Shown here in pieces: positions 2,913 to 28,234 of a stretch of DNA of 41,156 nucleotides. The notes under the pieces were generated by a model. It ran no database searches. It saw nothing but the letters and a program-made list of their open reading frames with translations, and was not told where the DNA came from. The stretch is from Gilliamella sp. wkB108 (GTDB lineage: Bacteria > Pseudomonadota > Gammaproteobacteria > Enterobacterales > Orbaceae): NCBI RefSeq assembly GCF_001690195.1, contig NZ_LZGM01000108.1, positions 1-41,156 on the forward strand, read 5' to 3'. A program made the translations under genes and the position numbers. The first letter of the stretch is position 1. Every line of letters begins with the position of its first letter.

Positions 2913-3073
2913 TAAAAATTATATTTTCTTTTTTGAGAATAGAGTTATTTTAAAATAAAGATAAGTTTATTAAATTGAGTAGAAATAATTTTTCCTTTAT
3001 GAGATAATTATATTAATTGTCATTTATGACAAAAATTATAAATACAATTTTTTCAAACATATAGGTGTTTTTG

Positions 3074-12275: not shown

Positions 12276-14867
12276 ATGAATAAACAACAATTGGCCGCTA
12301 AGATTTGGGAATCGGCAAACCAAATGCGTTCTAAAATAGAAGCTAATGAATATAAAGATTACATACTTGGTTTTATCTTTTATAAATATTTAAGTGATCA
12401 GTTAGTACAATTTGTCTCTAAAGAAGGCATGACAGCGGACGATATTAAATCTCTGACTGAAAAAGATACAGATACGGTTAAATTTGTGCAAAGTAACTTA
12501 GGTTACTTTATTGCCTATGATAACCTGTTTTCAACTTGGATTGATCCGAAATATGAATTTGACGAATCTAATGTGCGTGATGCACTATCAGCGTTTAGCC
12601 GTTTAATTTCACCAACCTATAAAAAGCTCTTTGAAGGTATTTTTACCACCTTAGAAACGGGTTTAAGTAAACTCGGTGAAAGTGCCGGGAAACGCACCAA
12701 AGCCATCAGCGATTTACTGGACTTGATTAAAAGTATCCCGATGAATGCCAATCAAGGATACGATGTGCTAGGTTACATTTACGAATATTTGCTTGGAAAA
12801 TTTGCGGCTAATGCGGGTAAAAAAGCCGGTGAATTTTACACGCCGCATGAAGTTTCAGTACTGATGTCAAACATCATTGCTCATGAATTAAAACATAAAA
12901 ACACGATTGAAATTTACGACCCAACATCGGGATCTGGTTCACTATTAATAAATATCGGTGAGGCGTTCCAGAAATATGCCAAAAATAAAGACTGTATTAC
13001 CTATTATGCTCAAGAGTTAAAAGCCAACACTTATAATTTAACCCGTATGAATTTGGTTATGCGTGGTATTAAAGCCAGCAACATAAAAACTCGTAATGGC
13101 GACACCTTGGAAGATGATTGGCCTTATTTTGATGACAGTGACCCACAAGGCACATATCATGCTTTGCATGTTGATGCAGTCGTATCGAATCCACCTTATT
13201 CCCAAAACTGGGATCCGAGCTTTAAAGAGAACGATCCGCGCTATTCTCGTTTTGGGCTTGCCCCCAAAACCAAAGCCGATTTCGCTTTTTTATTGCATGA
13301 CCTATACCATTTAAAACCTGATGGTATTATGACGATTGTGCTGCCTCATGGTGTTTTATTCCGAGGGGGGGAAGAAGGCGAGATTCGTAAGCAACTTATT
13401 GAGCAGAACCATATTGATACGATTATCGGTTTACCGGCAAATATCTTTTTTGGTACTGGTATTCCTACGGTAATTTTGGTACTTAAACAAAAACGCCAAA
13501 ATACTGACGTATTGGTGATTGATGCCTCGAAACACTTTATTAAAGAAGGTAAAAATAACAAACTGCAAACCAGTGATATCAAACGTATTACGGATGCGGT
13601 AATTAACCGTGAAAGTATCGACAAGTTCTCACAACTGGTTAGCAAACAGACCTTGCGTGATAATGACTATAATCTTAATATTCCTCGCTATGTGGACTCT
13701 GCGGAAGCGCCACAAAGCTGGGATTTACATGCCACTATGCTGGGTGGTATTCCTAACAGTGAAATTGCTGAATTACAGCACTATTGGCAAACCTTTCCAG
13801 AGCTGCGTAGCACGCTGTTTACAGCCAAATCAGCGGCTTATAGCGAGCTAGCTATAGATAAAAAAGACGTTAACCGAACGATTGCCAAGCATCCACAAGT
13901 GTTGGCATTTATTGACGCCTACAATCAAGCTTTTAATGGTTTTGATGCACATTTAAATACGCAATTGATTGAAAATTGGCAGAGTGTTAAACGTAATCAG
14001 TGTGAATCGGCATTAAGTACGGAATTATTTAACCGTTTAACGTCAATCAACCTAATCGACAAATATCAAGCTTATCAATTTTTAAGTGATCAATGGCAAA
14101 TCATCGGCGCTGATTTAGAAATGATGCAAACGGAAGGGTTTGCCGCCACTAAACAAGTTGACCCAAATATGGTGATTAAGAAGAAAAACGGTCAAGACAC
14201 AGAAGTGCAAGAAGGTTGGCGAGGCCACATATTACCGTTTGATTTAGTGCAACAGACTTATTTGAATGATGCGTTACAAGCATTAGCTGAAAAGGAAACT
14301 CGCTTAGCAGAAATCGCCAGCACACTAGAAGAGATATTAGAATCACTTACTGAGGAAGAAAAAGAGCAAGATACCATTAAAGACAGCCAAGATGGTTTTG
14401 CTAATGCTGAAGTGAGCAAAGTAGCTAAAATATTCTTGAAAGAACAAAAAGACAGCAAAATCAAGTTTACTGAAGATAGCTATGAGTACAAAATGATTCA
14501 AACTAGTCGGCTAATTGACGAAGAAAAAACACTGAAAAAAGCCGCTAAAGAGGCAGCTACAGCATTGCACCTAAAAACTAAAGCCACCATTGAAGCGTTA
14601 ACTGATGAACAGGTGAACAATTTACTGTACCTTAAATGGATCACCCCACTATGCAGTGAACTGGCAACATTGCCAAACGCAGTGATTAGCCAGTTGACTA
14701 ATCAAGTGCAATCTCTGGCTGATAAATACGCAGTTACTTACTCGCAAGTGGCCAATGACATCAAAACCACCGAGCAAGAGCTAGCGCAGATGCTGAGCGA
14801 ACTTACTGGTAATGAGTTTGATATGCAAGGCTTGGCTGAACTCGCTAGTTTGTTAAAGGGTGAATAA
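12276..14867 (+). CDS. hsdM: Type I restriction-modification system methyltransferase subunit HsdM
   Basis: 863 residues. The N-terminal HsdM helical domain (QLAAKIWESANQMR, then DYILGFIFYKYLSD) is followed by the N6-adenine methyltransferase core. Here are the pre-motif GEFYTPHEVSVLMSNI, motif I IYDPTSGSGSLL and catalytic motif IV VVSNPPYSQNWD. It pairs with HsdS to methylate adenine in a bipartite site, and with HsdR to restrict. It is longer than the classical HsdM of about 520 residues. The extra C-terminal 350 residues are charged and helical, with likely coiled coil, as in a long-HsdM subgroup. A G7 run lies at 13365-13371 in the conserved FRGGEEGEIRK segment. It leads a tight hsdM-hsdS-hsdR operon. 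Confidence 0.92.
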   Translation: MNKQQLAAKIWESANQMRSKIEANEYKDYILGFIFYKYLSDQLVQFVSKEGMTADDIKSLTEKDTDTVKFVQSNLGYFIAYDNLFSTWIDPKYEFDESNVRDALSAFSRLISPTYKKLFEGIFTTLETGLSKLGESAGKRTKAISDLLDLIKSIPMNANQGYDVLGYIYEYLLGKFAANAGKKAGEFYTPHEVSVLMSNIIAHELKHKNTIEIYDPTSGSGSLLINIGEAFQKYAKNKDCITYYAQELKANTYNLTRMNLVMRGIKASNIKTRNGDTLEDDWPYFDDSDPQGTYHALHVDAVVSNPPYSQNWDPSFKENDPRYSRFGLAPKTKADFAFLLHDLYHLKPDGIMTIVLPHGVLFRGGEEGEIRKQLIEQNHIDTIIGLPANIFFGTGIPTVILVLKQKRQNTDVLVIDASKHFIKEGKNNKLQTSDIKRITDAVINRESIDKFSQLVSKQTLRDNDYNLNIPRYVDSAEAPQSWDLHATMLGGIPNSEIAELQHYWQTFPELRSTLFTAKSAAYSELAIDKKDVNRTIAKHPQVLAFIDAYNQAFNGFDAHLNTQLIENWQSVKRNQCESALSTELFNRLTSINLIDKYQAYQFLSDQWQIIGADLEMMQTEGFAATKQVDPNMVIKKKNGQDTEVQEGWRGHILPFDLVQQTYLNDALQALAEKETRLAEIASTLEEILESLTEEEKEQDTIKDSQDGFANAEVSKVAKIFLKEQKDSKIKFTEDSYEYKMIQTSRLIDEEKTLKKAAKEAATALHLKTKATIEALTDEQVNNLLYLKWITPLCSELATLPNAVISQLTNQVQSLADKYAVTYSQVANDIKTTEQELAQMLSELTGNEFDMQGLAELASLLKGE

Positions 14868-14868
14868 T

Positions 14869-16101
14869 ATGAGTGCGGATAAAAAAGTGCCAGCAATTCG
14901 GTTTAAGGGGTTTCATGAAGAGTGGAAGTCAACAACGTTAGGCGCTAGTATTTCGTATACCAAAGGTTTCGCTTTTAAATCAAGTGATTATCAAAGTTAT
15001 GGAATAAGAATTATTAGAGTTTCAGATTTAACTCAAAATAACCTTTCAGAATCATCAAATAAAATATACATAAGTAGGACTGAAGCAAGTTTATATTCAA
15101 AATATGTAATTAATAATGGAGATATTGTAATTACGACAGTTGGTTCAAAAGCTGAAATGAGAGAATCTGCAGTAGGTAGAGCTATTTTTTTTACAAAAAG
15201 TGAAGATTATCTTCTAAATCAAAATTTAGTAAAAGTAACCCCTTTAATTAATAATGATAGTCGATTTCTTTATAATCAACTATTGAGAAAGCAATATGCT
15301 AAATTTATTGAAGATATTCAGAGAGGTAATGCAAACCAAGCCAATATAGCAATTAGTGATTTATGGGAATATTCTTTAAACAGCCCAATAAATAAAAAAG
15401 AACAAACCCAAATTGGCAACTACTTCCAAAAACTCGACACCCTAATCAACCAACACCAAAATAAGCATGATAAGCTTTGTAACATTAAAAAAGCCATGCT
15501 CGAAAAAATGTTCCCTAAACAAGGCAAAACTATGCCAGAAATTCGTTTTAAAGGGTTTAGTGGGGAGTGGGGGGAAATTGAGTTAAGTGACGAAGTTACT
15601 TTTCTTAATGGTCGAGCTTATAGCCAAGAAGAGCTCCAAGATAAAGGAAAGTACCCTGTTTTAAGGGTTGGTAATTTTTATACCAATTCCTCGTGGTACT
15701 ACTCAGATATGGAACTTGGTGATAAATATTACGCTGACTATGGCGACTTACTTTATACGTGGTCTGCCAGTTTTGGCCCACATATCTGGAACGGTGATAA
15801 AGTCATCTATCATTATCATATCTGGAAGTTAGAAATTTCTGAAAATATTGACAAGTTGTTTTTATTACATCTTCTTGACTATGACAGAGCAAAGATATTA
15901 TCAGGGTCTAATGGCTCTACAATGATCCATATTACAAAAACGGCTATGGAATCAAAAAAAGTATTTATTCCAAAGAAACAAGAACAAATAGCAATCGGTA
16001 ATTACTTCCAAAAACTTGACAATTTGATCAACCAACACCAGCAACAAATTACCAAACTCAAAAACATCAAGCAAGCCTGCTTGAGCAAAATGTTTGTTTA
16101 A
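14869..16101 (+). CDS. hsdS: Type I restriction-modification system specificity subunit HsdS
   Basis: About 410 residues in two similar halves. Each half begins with an IRFKGF..EW motif (residues about 8 and 222), then a target-recognition domain, then a helical conserved region. The two helical regions are near copies: IGNYFQKLDTLINQHQ and IGNYFQKLDNLINQHQ. Each recognition domain reads one half of a bipartite DNA site, and the helices set the spacing. I chose the ATG at 14869, one base after the hsdM stop; a GTG at 14860 overlaps hsdM and is also possible. The duplicated DNA at 15400-15459 and 15982-16040 could serve recombination that swaps recognition domains. Confidence 0.92.
   Translation: MSADKKVPAIRFKGFHEEWKSTTLGASISYTKGFAFKSSDYQSYGIRIIRVSDLTQNNLSESSNKIYISRTEASLYSKYVINNGDIVITTVGSKAEMRESAVGRAIFFTKSEDYLLNQNLVKVTPLINNDSRFLYNQLLRKQYAKFIEDIQRGNANQANIAISDLWEYSLNSPINKKEQTQIGNYFQKLDTLINQHQNKHDKLCNIKKAMLEKMFPKQGKTMPEIRFKGFSGEWGEIELSDEVTFLNGRAYSQEELQDKGKYPVLRVGNFYTNSSWYYSDMELGDKYYADYGDLLYTWSASFGPHIWNGDKVIYHYHIWKLEISENIDKLFLLHLLDYDRAKILSGSNGSTMIHITKTAMESKKVFIPKKQEQIAIGNYFQKLDNLINQHQQQITKLKNIKQACLSKMFV
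15400..15459 (+). repeat. hsdS internal repeat, first copy
   Basis: Encodes the central conserved helix region of HsdS and matches 15982-16040 over about 60 nt. Shared blocks are ACTTCCAAAAACT and ATCAACCAACACCA. Confidence 0.75.
15982..16040 (+). repeat. hsdS internal repeat, second copy
   Basis: Encodes the C-terminal conserved helix region; partner of 15400-15459. Confidence 0.75.
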
Positions 16102-16110
16102 GGAGAAACG

Positions 16111-19100
16111 ATGATAACCTTTAAAACTGAAGCACAATTTGAGCAGGCCTTTATAGATGTACTCACCCAAAAAGGGTGGGAACCTGAGATACTTAAAAAC
16201 AAAACTGAGGCGGAATTACTACAAAACTGGGCCTCTATTTTGTTTGAAAATAACCGCCAGCAAGATCGCCTAAACGATGTGCCATTAACCAATACCGAAA
16301 TGCAGCAAATCATTGAGCAAATCAAAGAACTTAAAACCCCACTCAAGCTAAACGGTTTAATAAATGGTAAAACCGTCGCCATTAAGCGTGATAACCCAGC
16401 TGATACCTTGCATCTAGGTAAAGAAGTCAGCTTAAAAATTTATGATCGCCAAGAAATTGCCGCCGGTCAAAGTCGTTACCAAATTGTGCAGCAACCCAAA
16501 TTTGAACGTGGTAGCCCTTTGCGTAATGACCGCCGTGGTGATGTTATGCTACTTATCAATGGGATGCCGGTGATCCACGTTGAGCTAAAGCGCAGTGGTA
16601 TTCCGGTTAGCCAAGCCGTCAACCAAATTGAAAAGTACAGTAAAGAAGGGATATTTAGCGGCCTGTTTTCGCTTATCCAAGTATTTGTGGCGATGGCGCC
16701 AGAGGAGACCAAATACTTTGCCAACCCTGGGCCAGATGGCAAGTTTAATCCTAATTATCAATTTAACTGGGCCGACTTTAATAATGAACCCATAAATTAT
16801 TGGAAAGACATTGCTTCGACTTTACTGTCTATTCCTATGGCACACCAGTTGATTGGCTTTTACACTGTCGCCGACGATACCGATGGCACCCTTAAAGTGA
16901 TGCGTAGTTATCAGTATTATGCTGCCAATGCAATATCAGATAAAGTAGCTAAAACCAATTGGCAACAACTCGGTAATGTAGCTAATAATCCAGATCGCCT
17001 CGGTGGCTATGTGTGGCATACCACGGGGTCAGGTAAAACCATGACCAGTTTTAAATCGGCACAGTTAATTGCCCAATCCAAAGATGCCGATAAAGTGATT
17101 TTTTTAATGGATCGTATTGAACTCGGTACGCAATCCCTTGCAGAGTATCGTAATTTTGCCAATGAAGGTGAAGACGTTCAAGCTACGGAAGATACCAATA
17201 TGCTCATTACCAAATTAAAAAGTAGTAACTCTGCTGACACCTTAATAGTTAGCTCCATCCAAAAAATGAGTAATATTTTTGAAGCGGTAGACGATGAAGG
17301 CACTGCCACAAACTCAGCTGATATTGAAAAAATCCGAGCCAAGCGTTTGGTATTTATTATTGACGAGGCTCACCGTTCAACGATGAGTGGTGGTAAAGAA
17401 AATAAAGAAGGTATGTTGGTAAGAATAAAAAAAACCTTCCCTAGAGCCCTCTTTTTTGGTTTTACCGGCACGCCGATTCATGAAGAAAACAAAATTAATC
17501 GCAATACTACCGCTGACGTGTTTGGCAATGAACTGCATCGTTATAGTATTGCTGATGGTATACGCGATGGCAACGTACTGGGTTTTGACCCTTATAAAGT
17601 TTCGACGTTTAGATATAGCGACTTGAGGGAAAAGGTGGCACTTGAACAAGCTAAAGCCACCACTGTTATTGAAGCCATAAATGATCCGGTAAAAAAGAAA
17701 AAATTTAATTATTTTATGAATGATGTGCCGATGGCTGGCTATCAAGATGCTACGGGTAAATACCACAAAGGCATTGAAGACTATATACCGAAAAGCCAAT
17801 ATTTAACCGAAGCGCATCAAGAAAAGGTTGTCAGTGACATCTTAGATAAATGGAATGTGCTCAGTCAAGGCAGTAAGTTTCATGCTATTTTTGCTACAGA
17901 CAGCATTGCCGAAGCCATTGATTATTATCGGCGCTTAAAAGCAGTTAAACCGGAACTGAAAGTGTCCGCCTTATTTGATCCACATATTGATAATAATGGT
18001 GATGATGACCGCGGTCCAACTTTTAAAGGTGATGGCTTAGAGGAAATTATGTCCGACTATAATGCACGCTATGGTCATGATTTTGATTTTGCCCGCCACG
18101 CTGCCTTTAAAAAAGATTTAGCGGCACGCCTTGCTCATAAAAAACCTTATGAACGCATTCATACTGAGCCTGCAAAACAATTAGATTTACTGATTGTGGT
18201 AGACCAAATGCTTACCGGTTTTGATTCTAAGTGGCTCAATACTTTATATTTAGATAAGGTGTTACAATACCAAAATATTATTCAGGCGTTCTCGCGTACT
18301 AATCGTTTGTTTGGGCCTGATAAACCTCATGGCATCATTCGTTATTACCGCTACCCACACACCATGGAGCGGCACATCAACGATGCTGTAAAACTCTATT
18401 CTGGTGATAAGCCGATTGGCCTATTTGTTGATAAGTTGGCAAGTAACCTTGAAGCCATGAATAAATTAGTGGCCGATATTAGTGAGCTGTTTATTAACGC
18501 GGGCATTGATAATTTTGAAAAACTGCCAGATGATATCGATGCTTGTGCTAAATTTGCTAAATTATTTAATCTATTTAATCAACACTTAGAAGCGGCTAAA
18601 ATACAAGGCTTTGACTGGAAACAGTCGATCTATTCCTTTGATGAAAAAGGTAAAAAGTATGAGGTAACCGTAGTTATCGACGAACAAACATACTTGAGTC
18701 TCGCTCTGCGTTATAAAGAGTTAGTAGGAAAAGGTGAACGTATTGGGGTGAGCGGTGGTGATGTACCTTTTGATGTTAATGGTTATTTAACAGAAATCGA
18801 TACCGGTAAAATCGATGCTAACTATATGAATAGTCGCTTTGATAAATATTTAAAAGAGCTAAATAATAATCAAGATGTGGCGAGTATTGAAACCACCTTA
18901 AATGAGCTACATAAGTCATTTGCATCGCTCACCCAAAGTGAGCAAAAGTACGCTAAACTCTTTTTACATGATTTACAACGCGGTGATGCGCAGTTAATTG
19001 ATAGTTATACTTTTAGGGATTATATCAATACTTACAAAGATAATGCTGAAAATGCACAAGTTAATGTGGTGGTTGATGCACTTGGTTTAGATAAAAAACT

Positions 19101-19308
19101 GCTCTTAACGTTATTGAGCGATAGTGTAAATGAGAAAAATCTTAATGATTTTGGCCGATTCGATGCATTAAAAGAAACGGTAGATAAAGCAAAAGCGAAG
19201 GCCTACTTTGAAAAACAAGACGGCATCACAATATCGTTATTTAAGCTGAATATTCGTATTGAACAGTTTTTAAAACAGTTTATTTTTTCACGAACAAATG
19301 ATCTGTAA
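16111..19308 (+). CDS. hsdR: Type I restriction enzyme motor and nuclease subunit HsdR
   Basis: 1065 residues. The N-terminal endonuclease domain carries the PD-(D/E)xK pattern (RRGDVMLLINGMPVIHVELKR, residues about 145-168) with a GQSRYQIVQQ lead-in. The superfamily 2 motor follows: Walker A VWHTTGSGKTMTSFKSAQ (about 304), DEAH box FIIDEAHRS (about 414), motif III FFGFTGTPI and motif VI QAFSRTNRL. It translocates and cuts unmethylated DNA together with HsdM and HsdS. The start follows a strong AAGGAG 9 nt after the hsdS stop, so it is in the same operon. The frame is full length with no disruption. Confidence 0.93.
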   Translation: MITFKTEAQFEQAFIDVLTQKGWEPEILKNKTEAELLQNWASILFENNRQQDRLNDVPLTNTEMQQIIEQIKELKTPLKLNGLINGKTVAIKRDNPADTLHLGKEVSLKIYDRQEIAAGQSRYQIVQQPKFERGSPLRNDRRGDVMLLINGMPVIHVELKRSGIPVSQAVNQIEKYSKEGIFSGLFSLIQVFVAMAPEETKYFANPGPDGKFNPNYQFNWADFNNEPINYWKDIASTLLSIPMAHQLIGFYTVADDTDGTLKVMRSYQYYAANAISDKVAKTNWQQLGNVANNPDRLGGYVWHTTGSGKTMTSFKSAQLIAQSKDADKVIFLMDRIELGTQSLAEYRNFANEGEDVQATEDTNMLITKLKSSNSADTLIVSSIQKMSNIFEAVDDEGTATNSADIEKIRAKRLVFIIDEAHRSTMSGGKENKEGMLVRIKKTFPRALFFGFTGTPIHEENKINRNTTADVFGNELHRYSIADGIRDGNVLGFDPYKVSTFRYSDLREKVALEQAKATTVIEAINDPVKKKKFNYFMNDVPMAGYQDATGKYHKGIEDYIPKSQYLTEAHQEKVVSDILDKWNVLSQGSKFHAIFATDSIAEAIDYYRRLKAVKPELKVSALFDPHIDNNGDDDRGPTFKGDGLEEIMSDYNARYGHDFDFARHAAFKKDLAARLAHKKPYERIHTEPAKQLDLLIVVDQMLTGFDSKWLNTLYLDKVLQYQNIIQAFSRTNRLFGPDKPHGIIRYYRYPHTMERHINDAVKLYSGDKPIGLFVDKLASNLEAMNKLVADISELFINAGIDNFEKLPDDIDACAKFAKLFNLFNQHLEAAKIQGFDWKQSIYSFDEKGKKYEVTVVIDEQTYLSLALRYKELVGKGERIGVSGGDVPFDVNGYLTEIDTGKIDANYMNSRFDKYLKELNNNQDVASIETTLNELHKSFASLTQSEQKYAKLFLHDLQRGDAQLIDSYTFRDYINTYKDNAENAQVNVVVDALGLDKKLLLTLLSDSVNEKNLNDFGRFDALKETVDKAKAKAYFEKQDGITISLFKLNIRIEQFLKQFIFSRTNDL

Positions 19309-19407
19309 GGCGATGTCGTTAGTATAGAATTTTACTAAGTTAGTTTTTTCAATAAGCTTTGGTTTGACCATTACTACAAACTTTGGCTGTTAGGTTCAAC
19401 TCGGATC

Positions 19408-19428
19408 ATAACGTTTTTGTAACGTTAT
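19408..19428. promoter_or_regulatory. Inverted repeat upstream of mrr, possible operator
   Basis: ATAACGTT and AACGTTAT flank a 5-nt centre (TTTGT), a perfect 8-bp inverted repeat about 115 nt before mrr. The same octamer AACGTTAT occurs at 12254-12261 in front of hsdM, and ATAACGTT at 12040-12047. A shared regulator of both restriction units is possible. A simple hairpin is the alternative. Confidence 0.35.
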
Positions 19429-19543
19429 ACCATAGTTTGCTAAAGTGTTTTTTGCATGAATATAAAGGAGTTGGATTGGCTAAAACTAACCTACATGATT
19501 GTGATAAGTTTAAAAAATAATCCATTATATTAAGGAGAAATAA

Positions 19544-20452
19544 ATGGCTATTCCTGATTATCAAACGCTTATGCTACCGCTTTTAGAATGGCTATCCGAT
19601 GGCAAAGTTCATACTGCCAGGCAAACATATGACCATTTGATTCAGCTATTTAACTTAACACCTGATGAGGCAAATCAATTACTCCCTAATAGTAATCAAC
19701 CAATTATTGAAAATCGAGTTGGTTGGGCTAAAACCTATTTGAAAAAAGCAGGCTTGGTTGATAACTCTAAACGAGGAATTTGGCAAATAAGTGAATTAGG
19801 ATTAAAGTTTTTAAAAAATAAGCCTACACGAATCACGAACGAAGACTTAATGCATATACCTGAATTTTTATCATTTAAACAATCATCGCATTCTAGTTCA
19901 AGCCAAGCCAATCAAATTAAAGTTGAATCTGAAAGTACTCCGACAGAACTAATGGATTTATCCTATCAAAGAATTCGAGATGCACTTGCCACCGAAGTGC
20001 TTAGCGCGGTTAAAAATTGTTCACCTGCTTTTTTTGAACGGTTAGTTGTGGACGTTATGCTAGCTTTAGGTTATGGCGGTTCTCGCCGTGATGCCGGGGA
20101 GGCAACACGCATAGCCAAAGATGGTGGCATTGATGGGATCATTCGCGAAGACAAGCTTGGGCTGGACATGATTTATTTACAAGCTAAAAAGTGGGAAGGC
20201 ACTGTTGGCCGACCTGAAATACAGAAATTTGTAGGGGCCCTACAGGGCGAAAGAGCTAGAAAAGGCGTGTTTATTACTACTTCTAATTTTAGCTGTGAAG
20301 CAATTGAGTATGTAAAACACTTAGATTCTAAAATTATTTTAATTAACGGTAGTCAATTAGCTGAGTTAATGATAGATCACAATGTTGGGGTTTCAACAAG
20401 GCAGGCTTATGAAGTTAAGCAAATTGATAGTGATTACTTTGAGGATGCCTAA
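19544..20452 (+). CDS. mrr: Type IV restriction endonuclease Mrr
   Basis: 302 residues, close to the usual Mrr length. The N-terminal winged-helix Mrr_N domain (PDYQTLMLPLLEWLSDGKVH, then GWAKTYLKKAGLVDNSKRGIW) is followed by the Mrr catalytic domain: FFERLVVDVMLALGYGG, DGGIDGIIREDKLGLDMIYLQAKKW. This gives the PD-(D/E)xK-type residues as D, then Q-x-K. Mrr cuts methylated DNA and can be toxic when foreign methylases enter. It has its own upstream region of 235 bp and a good AAGGAG ribosome site. Next to hsdMSR it forms a unit like the E. coli immigration control region. Confidence 0.92.
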   Translation: MAIPDYQTLMLPLLEWLSDGKVHTARQTYDHLIQLFNLTPDEANQLLPNSNQPIIENRVGWAKTYLKKAGLVDNSKRGIWQISELGLKFLKNKPTRITNEDLMHIPEFLSFKQSSHSSSSQANQIKVESESTPTELMDLSYQRIRDALATEVLSAVKNCSPAFFERLVVDVMLALGYGGSRRDAGEATRIAKDGGIDGIIREDKLGLDMIYLQAKKWEGTVGRPEIQKFVGALQGERARKGVFITTSNFSCEAIEYVKHLDSKIILINGSQLAELMIDHNVGVSTRQAYEVKQIDSDYFEDA

Positions 20453-20477: not shown

Positions 20478-20603
20478 CAATGTCATCATGAGTTGATACT
20501 ATATAAAATGACTAATAATGTGGGATGAGTTACAGTACCCTCGATCGATTTTTCCAGTATTTATCTAATACCAAGATTATTAAATATAGAAAAGGGAAAT
20601 AAT

Positions 20604-20690
20604 ATGCAATCTGCTCGTGATAAATTGACAAGAGGAATTGTTGAAGCTGATAATTTAGGGGGATATTTACACCGGTTATTTAGGTTATAG
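20604..20690 (+). other. Small ORF of 28 codons, perhaps a truncated gene start
   Basis: It reads MQSARDKLTRGIVEADNL and ends LHRLFRL. A good ribosome site (AAAGGG, 7 nt before the ATG) precedes it, and IS481 debris begins right after. The bases 20646-20671 resemble the inverted-repeat end of the IS3 element at 2651-2696 (both end in GGATATTTACA), so the ORF may be cut by an old IS end. No family recognised. Confidence 0.25.
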
Positions 20691-20692
20691 AA

Positions 20693-21008
20693 ATACATTT
20701 CAAAAGTTATTTCGCCACAAACCAATGGGATCTGTGAACGTTTTCATAAGACAATTTTTTATGAATTTTATATGGTAACACTCCGTAAAAGCGCTATTGA
20801 GATTTAGAAGCACGCCAAAGAGAGCTGAACAATAAGTTGCATTATTACAATAATGAACGAACGCATCAGAGAAAAGGCGCAGTGGAAGAACATCAATAGG
20901 AACATGATTTGATGGAAAAATCTGGGAAGAGAAAAACCTGAACCAAATTTAACCTGAGAGACACCTAATAAAAATAGGTAACTGTCAGATTAGGTTTGAG
21001 CTAGTACA
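20693..21008 (+). mobile_element. IS481-family transposase remnant
   Basis: A fragment of the C-terminal DDE transposase reads SPQTNGICERFHKTIFYEFY, then in another frame ELNNKLHYYNNERTHQ, then after further shifts scraps of the tail. The block SPQTNGICERFHKT is a hallmark of IS481 transposases (catalytic Glu region). Several frameshifts and stops (TAG after AIEI) make it inactive. The end at about 20985-21008, TGTCAGATTAGGTTTGAGC then TAGTACA, looks like an IS terminus. The left half of the element is gone. Confidence 0.65.
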
Positions 21009-21073: not shown

Positions 21074-22087
21074 TTGTTAAAAAATAATGTATTGCCAAAT
21101 AATACACTAATACCTATTAAGGTTATTTCAACCGGTGTTGCATTACCATCTGAAAAAATCGAGGCTTTAGCGTTAGATAAAAAACTTAATAAACCCGCTG
21201 GTTACTCTTTTAAACGTTCTGGTATTCTCTACCGTTATTATGCAAATGAAGATCTTAATCAAGCGGATTTAGCAGCACAAGCAATTAATGATGCTTTAGT
21301 TCGTAGTAGTATCAATCCTCAATCAATCGATTTATTAATTTCTTCTTGCGCAATACCTGTTCAAGCCTTACCGTATAATGCTGCACATATTTTAAAAGCC
21401 AGTATGCTGCCCAAAACTTTAACCACTTTCGATATTAATTGTAGTTGTGTTAGTTTTATCTGTGCATTGCAAGTCGCAGCCGGTTTATTAAATAGTGGTA
21501 CTTATAAACGAATTGCAATTGTGTCTGCTGATCTGGCTTCACGCGGTTTAGATTGGCAAGATGAGGAATCGTCTTTGATTTTTGGCGACGGGGCGGCTTG
21601 TGCAATTGTTGAAAAAGGTAATGGTACTAGTGGTATTCTTTCTTGTTTATTTGAAACATATCCTGAAGGCATCGAGCTTTGTGAAATTCGCGCTGGTGGA
21701 ACTAGGTGTAATGTAAAAACAGCGATGAATGAAAGTGATTTTCTTTTCCATATGCAGGGAAAACAACTTTTCAAATTAGCCTCTTTGTTAATAGAGTCGT
21801 ATTTACATCGTTTGTTAATGCAAGCTAATTTAACATTGGAAGATATTGTAACGGTGATCCCTCATCAAGCGAGTCATTTATCTCTAGAACATATGCGTAA
21901 ACGGCTAAAAATATCAAACGATAGATTGATTGATATTTATCGATTTAGAGGTAATCAAGTGGCGGCATCTATTCCTAGCGCCTTACATGAAGCCATAATA
22001 ACTCAACGATTTAAACCTGATGATCCGGCGATGTTAATTGGCACAGCAGCAGGACTTACTTTGGGAGGGATGATTTTATTACCATGA
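21074..22087 (+). CDS. 3-oxoacyl-ACP synthase III family (FabH/OleA-like) condensing enzyme
   Basis: About 337 residues with the thiolase fold of KAS III. The likely nucleophile Cys lies in FDINCSCVSF (second Cys). The His is in VIPHQASHLSLE and the Asn in FRGNQVAASIPSAL, completing a Cys-His-Asn triad. Such enzymes join an acyl-CoA to malonyl-ACP, or two acyl chains head to head (OleA). It is not the housekeeping fabH by context: no plsX or fab genes are near. The start is TTG at 21074, with AAGGG 8 nt before it; TTG at 21050 would be longer and lacks such a site. It leads a coupled lipid operon, and its 3' end overlaps the next gene by 4 nt. IS481 debris lies directly upstream, so the promoter may be recent. 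Confidence 0.8.
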   Translation: MLKNNVLPNNTLIPIKVISTGVALPSEKIEALALDKKLNKPAGYSFKRSGILYRYYANEDLNQADLAAQAINDALVRSSINPQSIDLLISSCAIPVQALPYNAAHILKASMLPKTLTTFDINCSCVSFICALQVAAGLLNSGTYKRIAIVSADLASRGLDWQDEESSLIFGDGAACAIVEKGNGTSGILSCLFETYPEGIELCEIRAGGTRCNVKTAMNESDFLFHMQGKQLFKLASLLIESYLHRLLMQANLTLEDIVTVIPHQASHLSLEHMRKRLKISNDRLIDIYRFRGNQVAASIPSALHEAIITQRFKPDDPAMLIGTAAGLTLGGMILLP

Positions 22088-23091
22088 GATTTTTAGTTAC
22101 CGGAGCAACAAGCGGTTTAGGTCGTAATGCGGTCGAATGGTTGTTAAAAGAAGGTCATTGTGTCCATGCCACAGGGCGTAATAAAGAGGTTGGCAAACAT
22201 TTAGTTAAACTTGGAGCGAAATTTACTGAACTTGATTTAGTTACCGCAACGGATGTTGATTACAATTTCTTACTCAGTGATTGTGATACTGTTTGGCATT
22301 GTGCAGCACTATCTTCACCTTGGGGTAAATACTCATGGTTTTATCAAATAAATGTTCTTGTAACTTCTCGATTGGCGGTTTGTTGTGGAAAGCTCGGTAT
22401 TAAACGTTTTGTTCATGTATCAACACCTTCAATCTATTTCGATTTTAGATCTCATCAAAATATTACTGAGCATTATCGTGCTAAACATTTTGCTAATAAT
22501 TATGTAATAACAAAATATGAAGCAGAAAAATGTATTCAAGAATGTGTAAAAAGTTATCCTGATACAATTTATTTAATATTAAGACCTCGAGGTATTTTTG
22601 GTCCACATGATCGGGTGATCATCCCTCGAATACTAGCTTTATTAAAACGAACGAAAGGGAGTCTTTATTTACCCGGTGGGGGACAAAGTTATATCGACCT
22701 CACTTTTGTTCTTAATGTAGTTTATGCTTTATATCTCGCTTCCATAAATCAAAACATAAAATCAGGTGATATATTCAATATAACTAATCAACAACCTTGT
22801 CATCTTAAAGATTTATTGAAAGCATTGCTAAGTGATCGGTTACATATCAATTATAAAATCCGTACTTTGCCTTATCAATTTTTATATGGTGTGGCTACCA
22901 TGCTCGAAGGTTTAGCGAAATTAACAAACAAAGAACCCACATTAACGCGCTATAGTATTGGTACGCTATATTTTGATATGACATTGAGTCAAGAACATGC
23001 TATTAAACATTTAGGCTATAAACCAAAATACAATTTAAACGAAAGCATTGATATTACAGCCAATTGGCTACAACAAAATGGCATGGTTTAA
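22084..23091 (+). CDS. NAD(P)-dependent reductase of the OleD / 3beta-hydroxysteroid dehydrogenase type
   Basis: 335 residues, extended short-chain dehydrogenase. It has the Rossmann motif VTGATSGLGRNAVEWLL at the N-terminus. The catalytic Ser is in VHVSTPSIYFDF, and the Tyr/Lys pair in NNYVITKYEAEK. In the olefin (Ole) pathway the homologous OleD reduces the beta-keto acid made by OleA, and the pairing with a KAS III next door points to the same step here: reduction of a 3-oxoacyl product. It overlaps its upstream neighbour (ATGA) and is followed after one base by the next gene. The exact substrate is unknown. Confidence 0.8.
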   Translation: MRFLVTGATSGLGRNAVEWLLKEGHCVHATGRNKEVGKHLVKLGAKFTELDLVTATDVDYNFLLSDCDTVWHCAALSSPWGKYSWFYQINVLVTSRLAVCCGKLGIKRFVHVSTPSIYFDFRSHQNITEHYRAKHFANNYVITKYEAEKCIQECVKSYPDTIYLILRPRGIFGPHDRVIIPRILALLKRTKGSLYLPGGGQSYIDLTFVLNVVYALYLASINQNIKSGDIFNITNQQPCHLKDLLKALLSDRLHINYKIRTLPYQFLYGVATMLEGLAKLTNKEPTLTRYSIGTLYFDMTLSQEHAIKHLGYKPKYNLNESIDITANWLQQNGMV

Positions 23092-23092
23092 T

Positions 23093-23899
23093 ATGGCAAA
23101 AATTACAACTTTTAAAGCTGGTTATTGCACACATATTGCTTGTATGGCTATGCGTGGTGCAGGTCTTAAGGTGTGTCAGTTTCCTGCACGAGCTTGGCTT
23201 ATTGAAATTGATGGATATCGCTGGCTATGGGATACTGGTTATGCCGATTATTTTAACCAATACACACAAACAGGGATCTTTAAACTCTATCAAAAAACCA
23301 CACCTGTTTATCTCAATAAAGGCGAGTCTTTAAAAGAGCAATTTGATTCATTGGGTATTGATCTTGCCAGTATTCAAAACATCATAATATCGCATTTTCA
23401 TGGCGATCATATTGCTGGTTTAAAAGATTTTATCCATAGCAAATTTATTTGTTCCCAAGAAGGTTGGCAAACAGTCAAATATTTACGTGGATTTAATGCG
23501 CTTAGGCAAGGGTTTGTACCGGATCTTCTTCCAATTGATTTTGAAAAACGAGTTAGTTTTTTAGAGCAGTTTGAAAAATGTGAATTAGCGCCTGAATTGG
23601 CTCCATTTACTTTTGGTTATATTTTACCGCATAGTAAAAAACAAATTATTCTTGTTCCATTACCGGGTCATGCTGTAGGTCATATTGGAGCATTTATTTT
23701 AACTGATTGTGGCTGGACATTACTTGCAAGTGATGCTGCATGGGTTAAAGCGAATTATAAAGAGTTGAAAAAGCCTTCTCGGTTGGCACACTTGATTATG
23801 TCTGATTCAAAATCATATTATCAAACTCTTAAACAGATACATCAACTTTCTTATCATCCTGATGTTACGATTTATTTAAGTCATGAGGGTGAAGAATGA
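23093..23899 (+). CDS. Metallo-beta-lactamase-fold hydrolase
   Basis: About 268 residues. The zinc-site motif is SHFHGDHIAGL (HxHxDH), with the further ligands in LPGHAVGHIG and LLASDAAW and a late His in LSHEGEE. The fold suits hydrolysis of lactones or thioesters; AHL lactonases and other quorum-quenching enzymes look alike. In this operon it might act on a thioester or beta-lactone intermediate. The ATG at 23093 follows the preceding stop by one base; an in-frame ATG at 23048 inside the upstream gene is less likely. The stop overlaps the next start (ATGA). Confidence 0.8.
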   Translation: MAKITTFKAGYCTHIACMAMRGAGLKVCQFPARAWLIEIDGYRWLWDTGYADYFNQYTQTGIFKLYQKTTPVYLNKGESLKEQFDSLGIDLASIQNIIISHFHGDHIAGLKDFIHSKFICSQEGWQTVKYLRGFNALRQGFVPDLLPIDFEKRVSFLEQFEKCELAPELAPFTFGYILPHSKKQIILVPLPGHAVGHIGAFILTDCGWTLLASDAAWVKANYKELKKPSRLAHLIMSDSKSYYQTLKQIHQLSYHPDVTIYLSHEGEE

Positions 23900-25182
23900 G
23901 GTTATTGAAAATACTCTGGTATTATTGGCGAACAAAACAGTTAAGATTTAAAAATCGGATTGCGCTTGAAAATTATCAAGAAAAACAATTAGAAAAATTT
24001 AAGCATCGTGTTTTAAGCAAAAGCCCTTATTTCAAACAATTTATTGATCAACCTTTCAAATTTTGGCCATTAATGAATAAACAAATCATGATGCAAAATT
24101 TCGATCAAATGAATACTGCTCATCTTAGTTGTCAGGAATTATTTGCTTTAGCTCAACAAAGTGAAATTCAGCGAGATTTTTCCGCTAAAAAAAGTAAATT
24201 TAGCGTCGGGTTATCCTCTGGTACCTCAGGACAACGAGCCCTTTTTGTGGTAAGCCCTAAAGAGCAACAACTTTGGGCTGGCGTTATTCTTGCAAAAATG
24301 TTACCACGAGGAATATTAACCAAAGAGCGTATAGCTTTATTTTTAAGAGCTGATAATCATCTTTATCATAGTACTAATAGCAATAGATTAACATTTCGAT
24401 TTTTTGGACTATTTGATAATTTTCAGCAACAAATTTTATCGCTTAATCAATACCAACCGACTATTATTGTTGCGCCGGCACAAGTTCTTCGCGCTTTGGC
24501 TCAGGAAAAACTTAATGGTTCATTAACCGTTACGCCGGTACTCGTTATCTCGGTAGCTGAAGTTCTTGAAAAACAAGATAGGCAACTTATTGAACAAGCA
24601 TTTAATAAATTTGCTGAAGTATACCAAGCAACAGAGGGATTTTTAGCGGCGACGTGTCAATATGGGACACTACATTTAAATGAAGAGTTTATTTATATTG
24701 AACCCTTGTGGTTAGATGAAGACCGTTTTATGCCAATTATTACTGATTTTACTCGTGAAACCCAACCCATAGTACGCTATCAATTAGATGATATTTTAGT
24801 TCGTAGTAAAACCACATGCCAATGTGGTCGGCAAGGTATGGCAATATCGCATATTGAAGGTCGTCATGATGATCAGTTAGTTTTGTCCGATCATCATGGT
24901 AAACCGTTAACTATTTTTGCTGATTATTGCAGTCGTATTATTGCAAATACATTACCATTAACCAGTGACTATCGACTTATTCAACATACTAACCATTTTA
25001 TTGAGTTAATTGGGTGTTGTTCTGAGCAAAAATTAATACAATGTCAAAAAGCATTAATTACTCATTTTACTCATCAAGGGGTTAATATTAATCTATTGCA
25101 CTGGAAACTAACTCCAGTTAACAATATCCCTTACCAGTTTACACAAAAAAGGCGACGAATAATTCGTATTAGAGGTACATAA
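23896..25182 (+). CDS. PaaK / F390-synthetase-like adenylate-forming enzyme
   Basis: 428 residues. It carries the ATP-loop VGLSSGTSGQRALFV (residues about 108-122), YQATEGFLAA (A5 motif) and YQLDDILV (A7). The CxCG pattern TTCQCGRQG is followed by IEGRHDDQLVL, as in phenylacetate-CoA ligase and coenzyme F390 synthetase relatives. It should activate a carboxylate as an acyl-adenylate. In the Ole pathway the adenylating enzyme OleC makes a beta-lactone from the beta-hydroxy acid, but OleC belongs to a different branch, so an equivalent role here is only a hypothesis. It is coupled to both neighbours (ATGA before, TAATG after). Confidence 0.75.
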   Translation: MRLLKILWYYWRTKQLRFKNRIALENYQEKQLEKFKHRVLSKSPYFKQFIDQPFKFWPLMNKQIMMQNFDQMNTAHLSCQELFALAQQSEIQRDFSAKKSKFSVGLSSGTSGQRALFVVSPKEQQLWAGVILAKMLPRGILTKERIALFLRADNHLYHSTNSNRLTFRFFGLFDNFQQQILSLNQYQPTIIVAPAQVLRALAQEKLNGSLTVTPVLVISVAEVLEKQDRQLIEQAFNKFAEVYQATEGFLAATCQYGTLHLNEEFIYIEPLWLDEDRFMPIITDFTRETQPIVRYQLDDILVRSKTTCQCGRQGMAISHIEGRHDDQLVLSDHHGKPLTIFADYCSRIIANTLPLTSDYRLIQHTNHFIELIGCCSEQKLIQCQKALITHFTHQGVNINLLHWKLTPVNNIPYQFTQKRRRIIRIRGT

Positions 25183-25814
25183 TGAAATATATCTTTATGC
25201 GATTCGTTTATTTAATAGTGGGTTGGTTGATTGTCGGTATAATTTATAGTGGCACAGCTCATCTACAAGGTGAACCTACCTTGCTTTCACCATCAATTAT
25301 TGATGAATGGATAGCTTTTACACCTCATGCGATTTGGTTTTATCTTTCGTTTTTTTTGATTATTCCGTGGTGTTTTTTTATTGCTCCTTATAAGCGTGTA
25401 GCCTGGATGTGTGTGTGTTTTATTGTCAGTGGATGTCTTGCCGGTCTATTTTATCTTATTTTTCCAACAACCGTGATTTGCCCTGTTGATACAACAGCAA
25501 CTTTTATAAGTTCTTGGTTACTTGAAAAGCTCATCAGTGTTGATGTCCCGGTGAATTGTTTTCCTTCATTGCATGTTACTTTAACATTTATTGTAATTTG
25601 GGGATGCTTAGAAGCAACTCACCCTATAAGAAGTCTATTATTGATTTTATGGGGAATTGCTATTGTTTTTTCGGTTATTCAACTGCGTAGACATCTTTTC
25701 ATTGATTTTATTGGTGGTGTTATTTTGGCACTTTTTGTCGGATGGTTTGTTCGCTATTGTTTTTGTCGCCTTGTGATAAAAAAACAGAACATCAGGAATT
25801 GTTATTATGATTGA
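25182..25814 (+). CDS. PAP2-superfamily membrane phosphatase/phosphotransferase
   Basis: 210 residues with about five or six membrane helices. The active-site motifs are CFPSLHVTLTFIV (the PSGH motif, here PSLH) and VIQLRRHLFIDFIGG (the last motif with His and Asp). The PSLH variant is also found in PAP2 relatives that move phospho-headgroups between lipids, so it may transfer rather than just remove phosphate. The usual first motif KxxxxxxRP is not clear; a YKRVAW stretch lies near residue 68. Start and stop overlap the neighbouring genes. The role suggested by context is handling a lipid phosphate or headgroup in the membrane. Confidence 0.7.
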   Translation: MKYIFMRFVYLIVGWLIVGIIYSGTAHLQGEPTLLSPSIIDEWIAFTPHAIWFYLSFFLIIPWCFFIAPYKRVAWMCVCFIVSGCLAGLFYLIFPTTVICPVDTTATFISSWLLEKLISVDVPVNCFPSLHVTLTFIVIWGCLEATHPIRSLLLILWGIAIVFSVIQLRRHLFIDFIGGVILALFVGWFVRYCFCRLVIKKQNIRNCYYD

Positions 25815-26913
25815 ATTAATTTTACCTTTTGTCATTATGATAATATTGGTTGCTGTAGAAGCTTTCGTTTTACAATATATTAAGAAAGTAACAATTAACT
25901 GGTCAGATGTTATCTTTAATTTAAACTCCGGACATCTGATGCTATGGTTATTCCGTGGGCTTGAGTTAGTATGTTACCATTTTGTTTATACACATTTTAG
26001 CTTTAATTTATTTGTTCATGTTCCGATTATTTTGACTTGGATATTTACCTTGTTTGCTTGGGATTTTGGATTTTATTGGGAACATCGTCTTCATCACAAG
26101 ATCCCTTTTCTGTGGGCGATTCATATAGTACATCATCAAGGTGAACATTTTAATTTATCGTTAGCTATCCGAAATTCTTGGTACTCATCATTAACATCTA
26201 TTCCTTTTTTTGCAGTACTTGCTGTCATTGGTGTGCCTACACCTATTTTTATTGCAGTTTCAATCTTTCATTATTCAATACAGTTTTTTAATCATAATGC
26301 TATTACACCTAAATTAGGTATTTTAGAAAATATTATAGTGACGCCTAATCACCATAAAGTTCATCATCTTAAAGATAAATATTACTCCAACCATAACTTC
26401 TCAGGATCTTTTATCTTTTGGGATAAGATTTTTGGTACTTTTGAATCGAGTCCAACCAATAAAACAATTGAATATGGTAGCTATGGTCGCATGTCACAAA
26501 ATCCATTTTGGGCAAGCATGTTGCCTTTTATGAAATTATTAAATATCTCTTATAAACAACGAGCTGCTACTTATCATATATCCAATTTATTATTAGTCAC
26601 CGGTGGGTTATTTTTGTTTGCTTTGGTATTAAGTTATATCTTTGATTATGGCTACGGTTATCATAATGTTAGCATCACACAATATCTTTTATTCAGTTGT
26701 TTAGTCTTAGGAAGTATTGCATTGGGGGGGATTGCAGAAGGGAAACGCTGGGGGATCATTACATGGTTTATGCTTTGTTGGTTTATTCCATTGTTTTTTA
26801 TTGTCTTTCTGAAATGGTCAGCGTTTTATTGGTTACTGTTTATGTGGTTAATTGCTGTACATGGTACAATTACTTTTGTTTTGTGGCTTATGGGGAAATA
26901 CAATGCAAAGTAA
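25807..26913 (+). CDS. Sterol desaturase / fatty acid hydroxylase family membrane enzyme
   Basis: 368 residues with several transmembrane helices and the di-iron histidine clusters of the ERG3/fatty acid hydroxylase family: EHRLHHKIPFLW, HIVHHQGEHFN and TPNHHKVHHLKDKYY. It uses O2 to hydroxylate or desaturate lipid chains. The C-terminal hundred residues add four more hydrophobic helices without known motifs. It overlaps the PAP2 gene by 8 nt and is the last gene of the tightly coupled set. A G7 run at 26724-26730 lies in the frame. Bacterial relatives work on lipids, not sterols, as a rule. Confidence 0.8.
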   Translation: MIELILPFVIMIILVAVEAFVLQYIKKVTINWSDVIFNLNSGHLMLWLFRGLELVCYHFVYTHFSFNLFVHVPIILTWIFTLFAWDFGFYWEHRLHHKIPFLWAIHIVHHQGEHFNLSLAIRNSWYSSLTSIPFFAVLAVIGVPTPIFIAVSIFHYSIQFFNHNAITPKLGILENIIVTPNHHKVHHLKDKYYSNHNFSGSFIFWDKIFGTFESSPTNKTIEYGSYGRMSQNPFWASMLPFMKLLNISYKQRAATYHISNLLLVTGGLFLFALVLSYIFDYGYGYHNVSITQYLLFSCLVLGSIALGGIAEGKRWGIITWFMLCWFIPLFFIVFLKWSAFYWLLFMWLIAVHGTITFVLWLMGKYNAK

Positions 26914-27148
26914 GCTTCGATATTTTAAGATTAAAGAAGGCGCTTTTCATTAAATATGAATAGAACAAGATTTTTGGAGTGAAAAAAGGAAAGTTATTAT
27001 CCAGCATGACTAAGGATTTTTAACCGTTAGCTAAAAAATATTAACGTACCAATCGAAAGATTAGTTATTTTGTGTTATGTCGAACAACAAATTATTTGAA
27101 AAATAATAGAGAACCAAGTGAATAATATCAGTATGCGGAACTAAATTA

Positions 27149-28234
27149 ATGCATAATAAATCAGTTACACTACTTTTTTGCAATGAACAAGATCAATCGC
27201 TACGTGAAGCGTTAAATTCTGCTGCTAAAAACTATTTACTTAAAGCTAATGATCATCGTTATGCCGATATGGGGATGTTTTTAAAACTTGTTTTATTATT
27301 AACATTTAATGTCGTTTTTTATGTTGTTGCACTTCATCAACAATCCGGTTATTTATTCTTTTTATGCTACTTTTTATTTATTACATCGGCATTACTTTTG
27401 GCGATTAATGTTGTACATGATGCATCTCATCAAGTCTTTTTCAAAACCGCTAAAGCAAATATATGGCTTAATCGAATTATTACCATCCCTTTAGGTATAG
27501 ATCCTGAATGTTGGCGAATCCGTCATGTGATACAACATCACCCTTATACCAATATTGAATACTACGATCTTGATATTGATTATAATGGAGTACTTAGACA
27601 AACACCTTTTCAAGTTCATCATTGGTTTATGCGTTACCAACACTATTATTGGCCATTTGTCGCTGGTATGACCTTCCCTACTATTATTTGGTGTTTTGAC
27701 TGGCAAGATAGGCTTGGACTTAAATTTAATAAAAATAAATTTAGTCACAATGGATTTCGTGGTTGGATGGCATTTTTGATTATTAAATTTTTACATGTCA
27801 GTATAGCAATTATTATTCCTTATGTTATTTGTCCTCAATTTAGTTTGTGGTTTATTTTATTTACTTATTGTTTAAGTCAATTCTTTGCATCACTGATTTT
27901 TGTCATTTTAATTCTTGGCTCTCACTGGGCAAAAGCCACTTTTTACCAAGCGCCGGCAAATCATTGTATGCCACATGGTCCAACACAACATGTATTTAAT
28001 ACGACACTTAATTGGCGATTGAAATCACCCATTTTAGAATATTGGCTTGGCGGACTTAATCTACATTTAACTCATCATATTTATCCCGGATTTAGTCATC
28101 GACACTATCAAAATTTAACATTTATCATTCAACAAATTGCTAAGCAATATCACCTAGATTATCAAGAAATAAATCTATATGAACTATTTAAACAACAACA
28201 GATTTTTTTGAAAAGTATGGGTAAAAAACCATAA
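27149..28234 (+). CDS. Membrane fatty acid desaturase
   Basis: 361 residues, FA_desaturase family. The three histidine boxes are HDASHQVFF, HVIQHHPYTN and LHLTHHIYPGFSHRHY. Hydrophobic stretches at about 42-90 and 210-265 anchor it in the membrane. It introduces a double bond or hydroxyl into an acyl chain with O2. It lies 235 bp after the hydroxylase gene in the same direction, so it may have its own promoter while serving the same pathway. No terminator is visible in the gap. It is followed by the unrelated core gene ftsY after 217 bp. Confidence 0.82.
   Translation: MHNKSVTLLFCNEQDQSLREALNSAAKNYLLKANDHRYADMGMFLKLVLLLTFNVVFYVVALHQQSGYLFFLCYFLFITSALLLAINVVHDASHQVFFKTAKANIWLNRIITIPLGIDPECWRIRHVIQHHPYTNIEYYDLDIDYNGVLRQTPFQVHHWFMRYQHYYWPFVAGMTFPTIIWCFDWQDRLGLKFNKNKFSHNGFRGWMAFLIIKFLHVSIAIIIPYVICPQFSLWFILFTYCLSQFFASLIFVILILGSHWAKATFYQAPANHCMPHGPTQHVFNTTLNWRLKSPILEYWLGGLNLHLTHHIYPGFSHRHYQNLTFIIQQIAKQYHLDYQEINLYELFKQQQIFLKSMGKKP

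What the first reader, a model, noticed from the sequence alone, without database searches (positions are those of the whole stretch)
21074..28234. Possible undescribed lipid pathway: KAS III, OleD-like reductase, MBL hydrolase, F390-like adenylating enzyme, PAP2, hydroxylase and desaturase
Six genes are joined by overlaps or a one-base gap (ATGA, TAATG, 8 nt) and a seventh follows. The first two resemble OleA and OleD of the long-chain olefin pathway, but OleB and OleC are absent. Their places are held by an MBL-fold hydrolase and a PaaK/F390-like adenylate-forming enzyme, joined by a PAP2 protein and two di-iron membrane enzymes. This suggests a condensed, hydroxylated and desaturated lipid with a possible headgroup step. 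The families and coupling are seen; the product is inference.
Basis: partly seen in the sequence, partly recalled or inferred. Interest (0 to 1): 0.78.

Follow-up and report, generated by a model that had tools for sequence, protein, structure and literature searches.

The report
Conserved operon for unknown bacterial lipid
A run of seven genes in a bee-gut-type bacterium, found in the same order in many other bacteria and matched in about one in eight complete E. coli genomes, probably makes an unusual membrane-type lipid for which I found no description.

Summary
Seven uninterrupted, tightly packed + strand genes (KAS III, SDR, MBL hydrolase, PaaK-like ligase TIGR02304, PAP2_3, di-iron hydroxylase, di-iron desaturase) lie at 21.07-28.23 kb. 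Of 40 sampled genomes with TIGR02304 over cut-off, own included, 38 have KAS-SDR-MBL-AMP in order and 27 have all seven families in order. E. coli Nissle 1917 carries the seven between narGHJI and tRNA-Tyr genes; DNA of that cluster matches 672 of 5426 complete E. coli genomes. The 'OleA' part does not hold: 0 of 44 cluster KAS have OleA's catalytic Glu, OleA is remote in the tree, and the SDR is far below OleD's cut-off. The KAS is not housekeeping FabH either. In relatives the four-gene core persists while neighbours change: PAP2_3+hydroxylase+desaturase, GT21+GT1, ATP-grasp and acetyltransferase, DUF3419, or none of these. I read this as a mobile lipid cassette with exchangeable headgroup steps. 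Product and reaction order are inferred. Ten paper searches found no description.

The parts
21074..22087 (+). KAS III-like ketosynthase (start uncertain: TTG 21050 or 21074); CHN triad present; no OleA Glu; MxnB/CorB side of a small KAS III tree
22084..23091 (+). extended SDR (OleD / 3beta-HSD-like reductase), YxxxK present
23093..23899 (+). MBL-fold hydrolase, nearest to AHL lactonases / 4-pyridoxolactonase; seven metal ligands invariant in 52 of 52 rows (one row a near-duplicate)
23896..25182 (+). F390 synthetase-related (TIGR02304) PaaK-like adenylate-forming enzyme
25182..25814 (+). PAP2_3 membrane phosphatase/phosphotransferase-like protein; PSLH and RH...D residues invariant in 29 rows
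25807..26913 (+). FA_hydroxylase / sterol-desaturase-type di-iron membrane enzyme
26914..27148 (+). 235-nt gap with a weak likely remnant of a first desaturase (DES1), intact at this place in 4 of 5 bee-gut-type relatives (L002, L003, L054, L108; not L109)
   Evidence: translated score 54; 0 of 300 shuffles reach it, highest 48. Against: blastn found nothing below E 1e-3
27149..28234 (+). fatty acid desaturase (FA_desaturase), matching the second desaturase of close relatives (78% against 40-45% for the first)

Best explanation
A horizontally mobile operon that makes an unusual envelope lipid. Shown: the gene set, conserved catalytic motifs, conserved order, a persistent four-gene core and changing tailoring genes. 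Inferred: (1) the PaaK-like enzyme activates a carboxylic acid (probably a fatty acid) as acyl-AMP and thioester; (2) the KAS loads an acyl group on its Cys and condenses it with a pre-activated nucleophile (malonyl- or beta-ketoacyl-carrier), because it lacks the Glu base that OleA and PpyS use; (3) the SDR reduces the beta-keto group to a hydroxyl; (4) the lactonase-like MBL enzyme releases the product from a thioester or lactone; (5) the two di-iron enzymes hydroxylate and desaturate the chain; (6) the PAP2_3 protein moves a phospho-headgroup onto a lipid hydroxyl, or removes a phosphate. In relatives sugar transferases (GT21, GT1), DUF3419 or ATP-grasp/acetyltransferase genes would take the headgroup role.
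For: 38 of 40 sampled genomes with TIGR02304 over cut-off have KAS-SDR-MBL-AMP in order; 27 of 40 have all seven families in order. The same seven genes are annotated in two E. coli records opened and their DNA matches 672 of 5426 complete E. coli genomes. Of 14 named records examined, 12 (Gamma-, Beta- and Alphaproteobacteria, Bacillota, Fusobacteriota) hold all four core families. Catalytic motifs are near invariant. Headgroup-type genes beside the core: GT21 in 10 of 40 genomes, DUF3419 in Rhizobium, PAP2_3 plus GT1 in Moraxella. The genome holds a second KAS III elsewhere that groups with E. coli FabH.
Against: No product, expression or enzyme data. The 40 genomes were picked by TIGR02304, so the counts are conditional on that gene. 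3 of 40 genomes and several named records have the core without any tailoring family I tested. GT1, ATP-grasp and acetyltransferase families are broad and not lipid-specific. PAP2_3 matches no solved structure, so phosphatase versus transferase is open. The four core enzymes could also serve a degradative or signalling role. Distances of the four core families correlate at r 0.955-0.970, which shared descent alone could give. The window probably lost one desaturase (two are present in 17 of 40 genomes), so its product may differ.
Confidence: 0.55

Rival explanations
1. An Ole-like (beta-lactone) pathway with non-homologous replacements: KAS makes a 2-alkyl-3-oxo acid from two chains, SDR reduces it, the PaaK-like enzyme closes a beta-lactone as OleC does, and the lactonase-like MBL opens or decarboxylates it as OleB does; tailoring follows.
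For: Best NCBIfam hit of the SDR is OleD, and an OleD model is also best for the second SDR of a relative (L072); MBL nearest lactonases; an adenylating enzyme is present.
Against: OleA's catalytic Glu is Leu/Ile in 44 of 44; OleA is remote in the tree; SDR at 133.8 of 580 bits; ligase is PaaK-like; olefins would need no headgroup genes.
Confidence: 0.15
2. A small-molecule signal or pyrone-type metabolite pathway (MxnB/CorB-like condensation of two chains), with the membrane enzymes only trimming it.
For: KAS nearest MxnB and CorB among solved structures by sequence (161.7 and 147.7 bits) and on their side of the tree (92/75). In Paracoccus a phosphopantetheine-binding protein and an AMP-binding protein lie about 2.5 kb upstream on the other strand.
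Against: The 92/75 support is below the star level, only 8 references were used and the tree tool warned of long branches meeting; no PKS or carrier protein is annotated inside the E. coli cluster, though carrier proteins were not searched for; GT21, PAP2_3 and DUF3419 point to lipids.
Confidence: 0.15
3. A catabolic or detoxifying set: ligase, dehydrogenase, MBL lactonase/thioesterase and thiolase-like KAS break down an imported acid or lactone.
For: PaaK relatives and lactonases are often catabolic (general knowledge).
Against: KAS with CHN triad is of the condensing FabH type; no transporter among the seven conserved families; headgroup-type genes in relatives.
Confidence: 0.1

Closest known systems
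OleABCD long-chain olefin pathway
   Same: KAS III plus OleD-like SDR plus an adenylate-forming enzyme and a hydrolase, four enzymes
   Different: KAS lacks the OleA Glu and is closer to FabH/MxnB; ligase is PaaK-like; hydrolase is MBL-fold, not alpha/beta; tailoring genes added. An OleD-positive locus, L091, served for comparison; its OleA, OleB and OleC were recognised by eye
MxnB / CorB stand-alone ketosynthases
   Same: closest solved structures by sequence; CHN triad; non-acidic residue at the OleA Glu position (Val there, Leu/Ile here)
   Different: no PKS assembly line annotated here; substrates unknown
Sphingolipid-type tailoring enzymes (SUR2, DES1, AUR1, ceramide glucosyltransferase; recalled)
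   Same: the broad families FA_hydroxylase, FA_desaturase, PAP2_3 and GT21 occur in these clusters
   Different: no serine palmitoyltransferase-type gene among the seven window genes; resemblance is at family level only
Phenylacetate-CoA ligase PaaK / coenzyme F390 synthetase
   Same: PaaK-type ligases are the best solved-structure matches of the ligase
   Different: own curated family TIGR02304; PaaK and F390 models score 21 bits each against cut-offs of 646 and 459

Membership tests
OleABCD olefin pathway | OleA catalytic Glu (E117 in Xanthomonas, per PMC4578411) | tested here: not met
   Leu 40, Ile 4 of 44 cluster KAS; Glu in the OleA of L091
OleABCD olefin pathway | OleD over curated cut-off | tested here: not met
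   133.8 bits against 580
OleABCD olefin pathway | OleB (alpha/beta hydrolase) and OleC in the cluster | tested here: not met
   none among the seven genes; rest of the genome not tested
Housekeeping FabH | over TIGR00747 cut-off and grouping with FabH | tested here: not met
   202.2 of 292.1 bits; five FabH references group apart, 100/98
KAS III superfamily | Cys-His-Asn triad, PF08541/PF08545 | tested here: met
PRK07204 KAS III (NF005541) | curated cut-off | tested here: not met
   best hit, 323.4 of 402 bits
MxnB/CorB-type ketosynthase | groups with MxnB/CorB apart from FabH | tested here: inconclusive
   92/75 support, few references, long-branch warning
MxnB/CorB-type ketosynthase | condenses two carrier-bound chains | not testable with these tools
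   needs enzyme assay
TIGR02304 F390 synthetase-related | curated cut-off | tested here: met
   550.1 of 251.9 bits
PaaK / F390 synthetase proper | curated cut-offs | tested here: not met
   about 21 bits each
AHL lactonase | seven metal ligands of the two-metal MBL site (ligand set recalled) | tested here: met
   52 of 52 rows
AHL lactonase | AiiA-type Tyr after the bridging Asp (recalled) | tested here: not met
   Trp in 51 of 52, Tyr in 1
AHL lactonase | curated cut-offs of AiiA, AhlS, AttM, AidB models | tested here: not met
   33-46 bits against 360-475
Ornithine lipid hydroxylase OlsE | curated cut-off | tested here: not met
   73 of 475 bits

The most novel reading that the evidence does not exclude
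An undescribed class of bacterial two-tailed, hydroxylated lipids, a functional counterpart of sphingolipids made without a serine palmitoyltransferase, whose KAS-SDR-MBL-PaaK-like core is shared by at least three phyla (named records of Pseudomonadota, Bacillota and Fusobacteriota) and whose headgroup is swapped by exchange of modules (PAP2_3, GT21/GT1, DUF3419, ATP-grasp/acetyltransferase). Its genes would be present in about one in eight complete E. coli genomes and in some bee-gut symbionts.
Probability: 0.25. Interest if true: 0.87.

Novelty: new variant of a known kind. Interest (0 to 1): 0.68.

Why it matters
DNA of this seven-gene cluster is matched in 672 of 5426 complete E. coli genomes, 671 of them over at least 80% of its length, including the probiotic Nissle 1917, and I found no account of it. 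If it makes an envelope lipid, a component of a much-studied species has been missed. Its patchy presence in Gilliamella and Snodgrassella also makes a host-association role testable. The persistent core with changing tailoring genes gives a direct way to work out the core's chemistry by comparison.

Tried and rejected
Rejected: KAS as OleA and as housekeeping FabH. Considered and not adopted: MBL as a PqsE-like thioesterase; the profile's solved-structure hits at E 1e-8 are lactonases and other hydrolases, and no entry there is named PqsE. E. coli DNA search with the window's ligase gene gave no match; the E. coli cluster was reached by protein. Two structure predictions on four-sequence alignments were too poor to use (mean pLDDT 42.4 and 52.5), so no fold search was run. 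The PAP2_3 profile found no solved structure. Promoter and terminator scans were no richer than shuffles. The CFT073 stretch opened was the wrong place and was not used; the locus tag c1690 in the paper search was a guess and occurs in none of the four papers listed. Papers holding 'F390 synthetase' (10): passages of PMC9823363, PMC5467263 and PMC2649909 were read and do not describe this cluster; the other seven were seen only as search listing.

Limits: TIGR02304 was the entry point; KAS or SDR copies without it were not sought. Weaker TIGR02304 matches were not examined (four below cut-off; matches above E 1e-60 are not shown). Of 61 plasmid-collection records with a match, 12 were opened, chosen by me from the 20 best; the weaker ones were not. 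'In order' means that no other tested family lies between, on the same strand and within 9.5 kb; untested genes are not seen. The genome's own FabH row was mis-picked, corrected before the tree, and skipped. L018 repeats the cluster of L005: it was left out of the KAS tree, the count, but is one of the 52 rows. L002 and L053 are the same contig. Two desaturase rows per locus may enter the 45 rows.
Full report
What is there. The window belongs to a Gilliamella-like genome (G000, contig C108). Between a restriction region and an ftsY-like gene lie seven + strand genes with overlaps of 4, 4, 1 and 8 nt, a 1-nt gap, and then a 235-nt gap before the last gene (ftsY named from its sequence, by eye). 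Families: KAS III; SDR with OleD as best NCBIfam hit but far under its cut-off; MBL fold; TIGR02304 'F390 synthetase-related' (550 bits, cut-off 251.9); PAP2_3; FA_hydroxylase; FA_desaturase. The KAS start is uncertain.

Do the enzymes look active? The KAS Cys-His-Asn triad is present in all 44 cluster KAS compared (L018 not counted). The MBL has the seven metal ligands in 52 of 52 rows. The ligase P-loop, YQxTEG, GRxDD and C-terminal Lys motifs (52 rows), the SDR YxxxK (50), the PAP2 PSLH and R-H...D residues (29) and the His boxes of the hydroxylase (29) and desaturases (45) are invariant or nearly so (motif names recalled).

Is it conserved? TIGR02304 over cut-off was found in 3 of 40 relatives, 2 of 369 genomes drawn from the class, 7 of 398 from the phylum, 32 of 246 from one family of the same order and 5 of 44 of the own family; the own genome is counted in all but. 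It is thus uncommon overall and clustered in some groups. These are 40 distinct genomes. In 38 of 40 the order KAS-SDR-MBL-AMP recurs; the other two (L086, L089) show no KAS, and the ligase of L089 is short. In 27 of 40 PAP2, hydroxylase and at least one desaturase follow in order; 17 have two desaturases; 3 (L055, L061, L083) have the core with none of the tailoring families I tested. The E. coli cluster was met first in a record labelled plasmid and lies on the Nissle 1917 chromosome between narGHJI and tRNA-Tyr genes. A search with it matched 672 of 5426 complete E. coli genomes, 671 over at least 80% of the query; only 20 rows were listed. Of 14 named records examined, 12 have all four core families, 8 of them in the same order, and 3 all seven families in order. 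The exceptions are the Pseudomonas amygdali plasmid (ligase and ATP-grasp only) and Pseudomonas Leaf58 (no KAS). Other orders occur in Moraxella and Fusobacterium, and an ATP-grasp gene is inserted in Pontibacillus and Paenibacillus.

The core stays, the tailoring changes. Besides the PAP2-hydroxylase-desaturase module, 10 of 40 genomes carry a GT21 glycosyltransferase gene with a second SDR and a GT1-like gene; 5 of these also have the PAP2 module. The family names were tested on L072, and in part on L062 and L076. Two of 40 have an Acetyltransf_6 gene and a Rieske oxygenase. Paraburkholderia has ATP-grasp, Acetyltransf_6 and Rieske genes. Rhizobium has DUF3419 (the betaine-lipid BtaA family, as I recall) and a gene without Pfam match that my own acetyltransferase profile picks up. 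Moraxella has GT1 and PAP2_3 genes between ligase and KAS. Several of these families act on lipid hydroxyls or amines (general knowledge), which is the main argument that the core makes a lipid with a headgroup site. GT1, ATP-grasp and acetyltransferases are broad families, so this is an argument from families, not a demonstration.

What kind of KAS is it? The nearest solved structures by sequence are MxnB and CorB (161.7 and 147.7 bits), then FabH (143.3 and less). In a tree of 52 rows the five FabH references, including the genome's own second KAS III, which lies among plsX- and fabD-like ORFs (recognised by eye), stand together (100/98). MxnB and CorB join the 44 cluster KAS with 92/75, which is not strong, and the tool warned of long branches meeting; the single OleA is on a very long branch. 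OleA and PpyS use a Glu base, which MxnB and CorB lack (PMC4578411, parts 1 and 2 of 3 read). At that column the cluster KAS have Leu (40) or Ile (4) of 44. So a plain two-acyl condensation as in OleA is unlikely, and a malonyl or beta-keto partner is expected. PMC4578411 places MxnB and CorB within the FabH clade, so 'FabH-derived, not housekeeping' is the safest label.

The other core enzymes. Among the MBL profile's best solved-structure matches are AHL lactonases and 4-pyridoxolactonase, but the window protein is far under the lactonase cut-offs, and the family has Trp where AiiA, as I recall, has Tyr (51 of 52). The ligase is nearest PaaK-type ligases, while Pfam's general AMP-binding model is silent at E 0.1. 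The SDR's best solved match is a sterol-4-alpha-carboxylate 3-dehydrogenase.

Mobility. Only 5 of 44 genomes of the own family have TIGR02304 over cut-off. Gilliamella WF3-4 and Snodgrassella communis share 80.5% over 8.1 kb of the cluster and no further match in the fetched flanks, and their KAS fall in one group with the window's (100/100; the pair itself is weakly supported, 88/10). This points to transfer between bee-gut symbionts. In the window the first desaturase seems reduced to a weak remnant: its translated score is above all 300 shuffles, but blastn saw nothing below E 1e-3.

Literature. Ten full-text searches showed no paper on this cluster; of the papers they listed only six were opened, five as passages. 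'TIGR02304' occurs in none. PMC5724707 and PMC12304814 were read as passages. Subscription papers and preprints are not in that library, so a description may exist.

Verdict. The OleA comparison should be dropped; the Ole-like lactone logic stays only as a rival. The product is unknown.

Noticed in passing
window 12276-20452: Type I restriction-modification genes (HsdM, specificity, HsdR) followed by an Mrr-type restriction endonuclease lie just upstream; an Eco57I-like methylase is at 3065-4924.
   Followed up: partly
window 20560-20955: Stretch with many stops that looks by eye like a decayed transposase, just upstream of the cluster.
   Followed up: no
window 26914-27148: Weak likely remnant of a first desaturase between hydroxylase and desaturase.
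   Followed up: yes
L062:10346-14207, L072:14190-18044, L011:4031-5852: A second module, OleD-like SDR, GT21, an approximately 190-aa protein without family match, and a GT1-like enzyme, follows the core in 9 of 40 genomes (a tenth lacks the 190-aa match); GT21 plus the 190-aa type is also in Fusobacterium.
   Followed up: partly
L005 (NZ_CP141085.1): E. coli record labelled plasmid carries narGHJI, purU and galU and looks like a chromosome fragment.
   Followed up: no
L098:2492-4167, L010:3500-5106: In Paracoccus and Ketogulonicigenium a divergent sulfotransferase and TetR gene sit beside the core, which may be a further headgroup step.
   Followed up: no
L098:1-1709: In Paracoccus a phosphopantetheine-binding protein and an AMP-binding protein lie upstream of the core on the other strand; a possible carrier for the KAS.
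   Followed up: no
window 8241-10915: HlyD-type membrane fusion protein and MFS transporter pair, as in EmrAB-like efflux.
   Followed up: no
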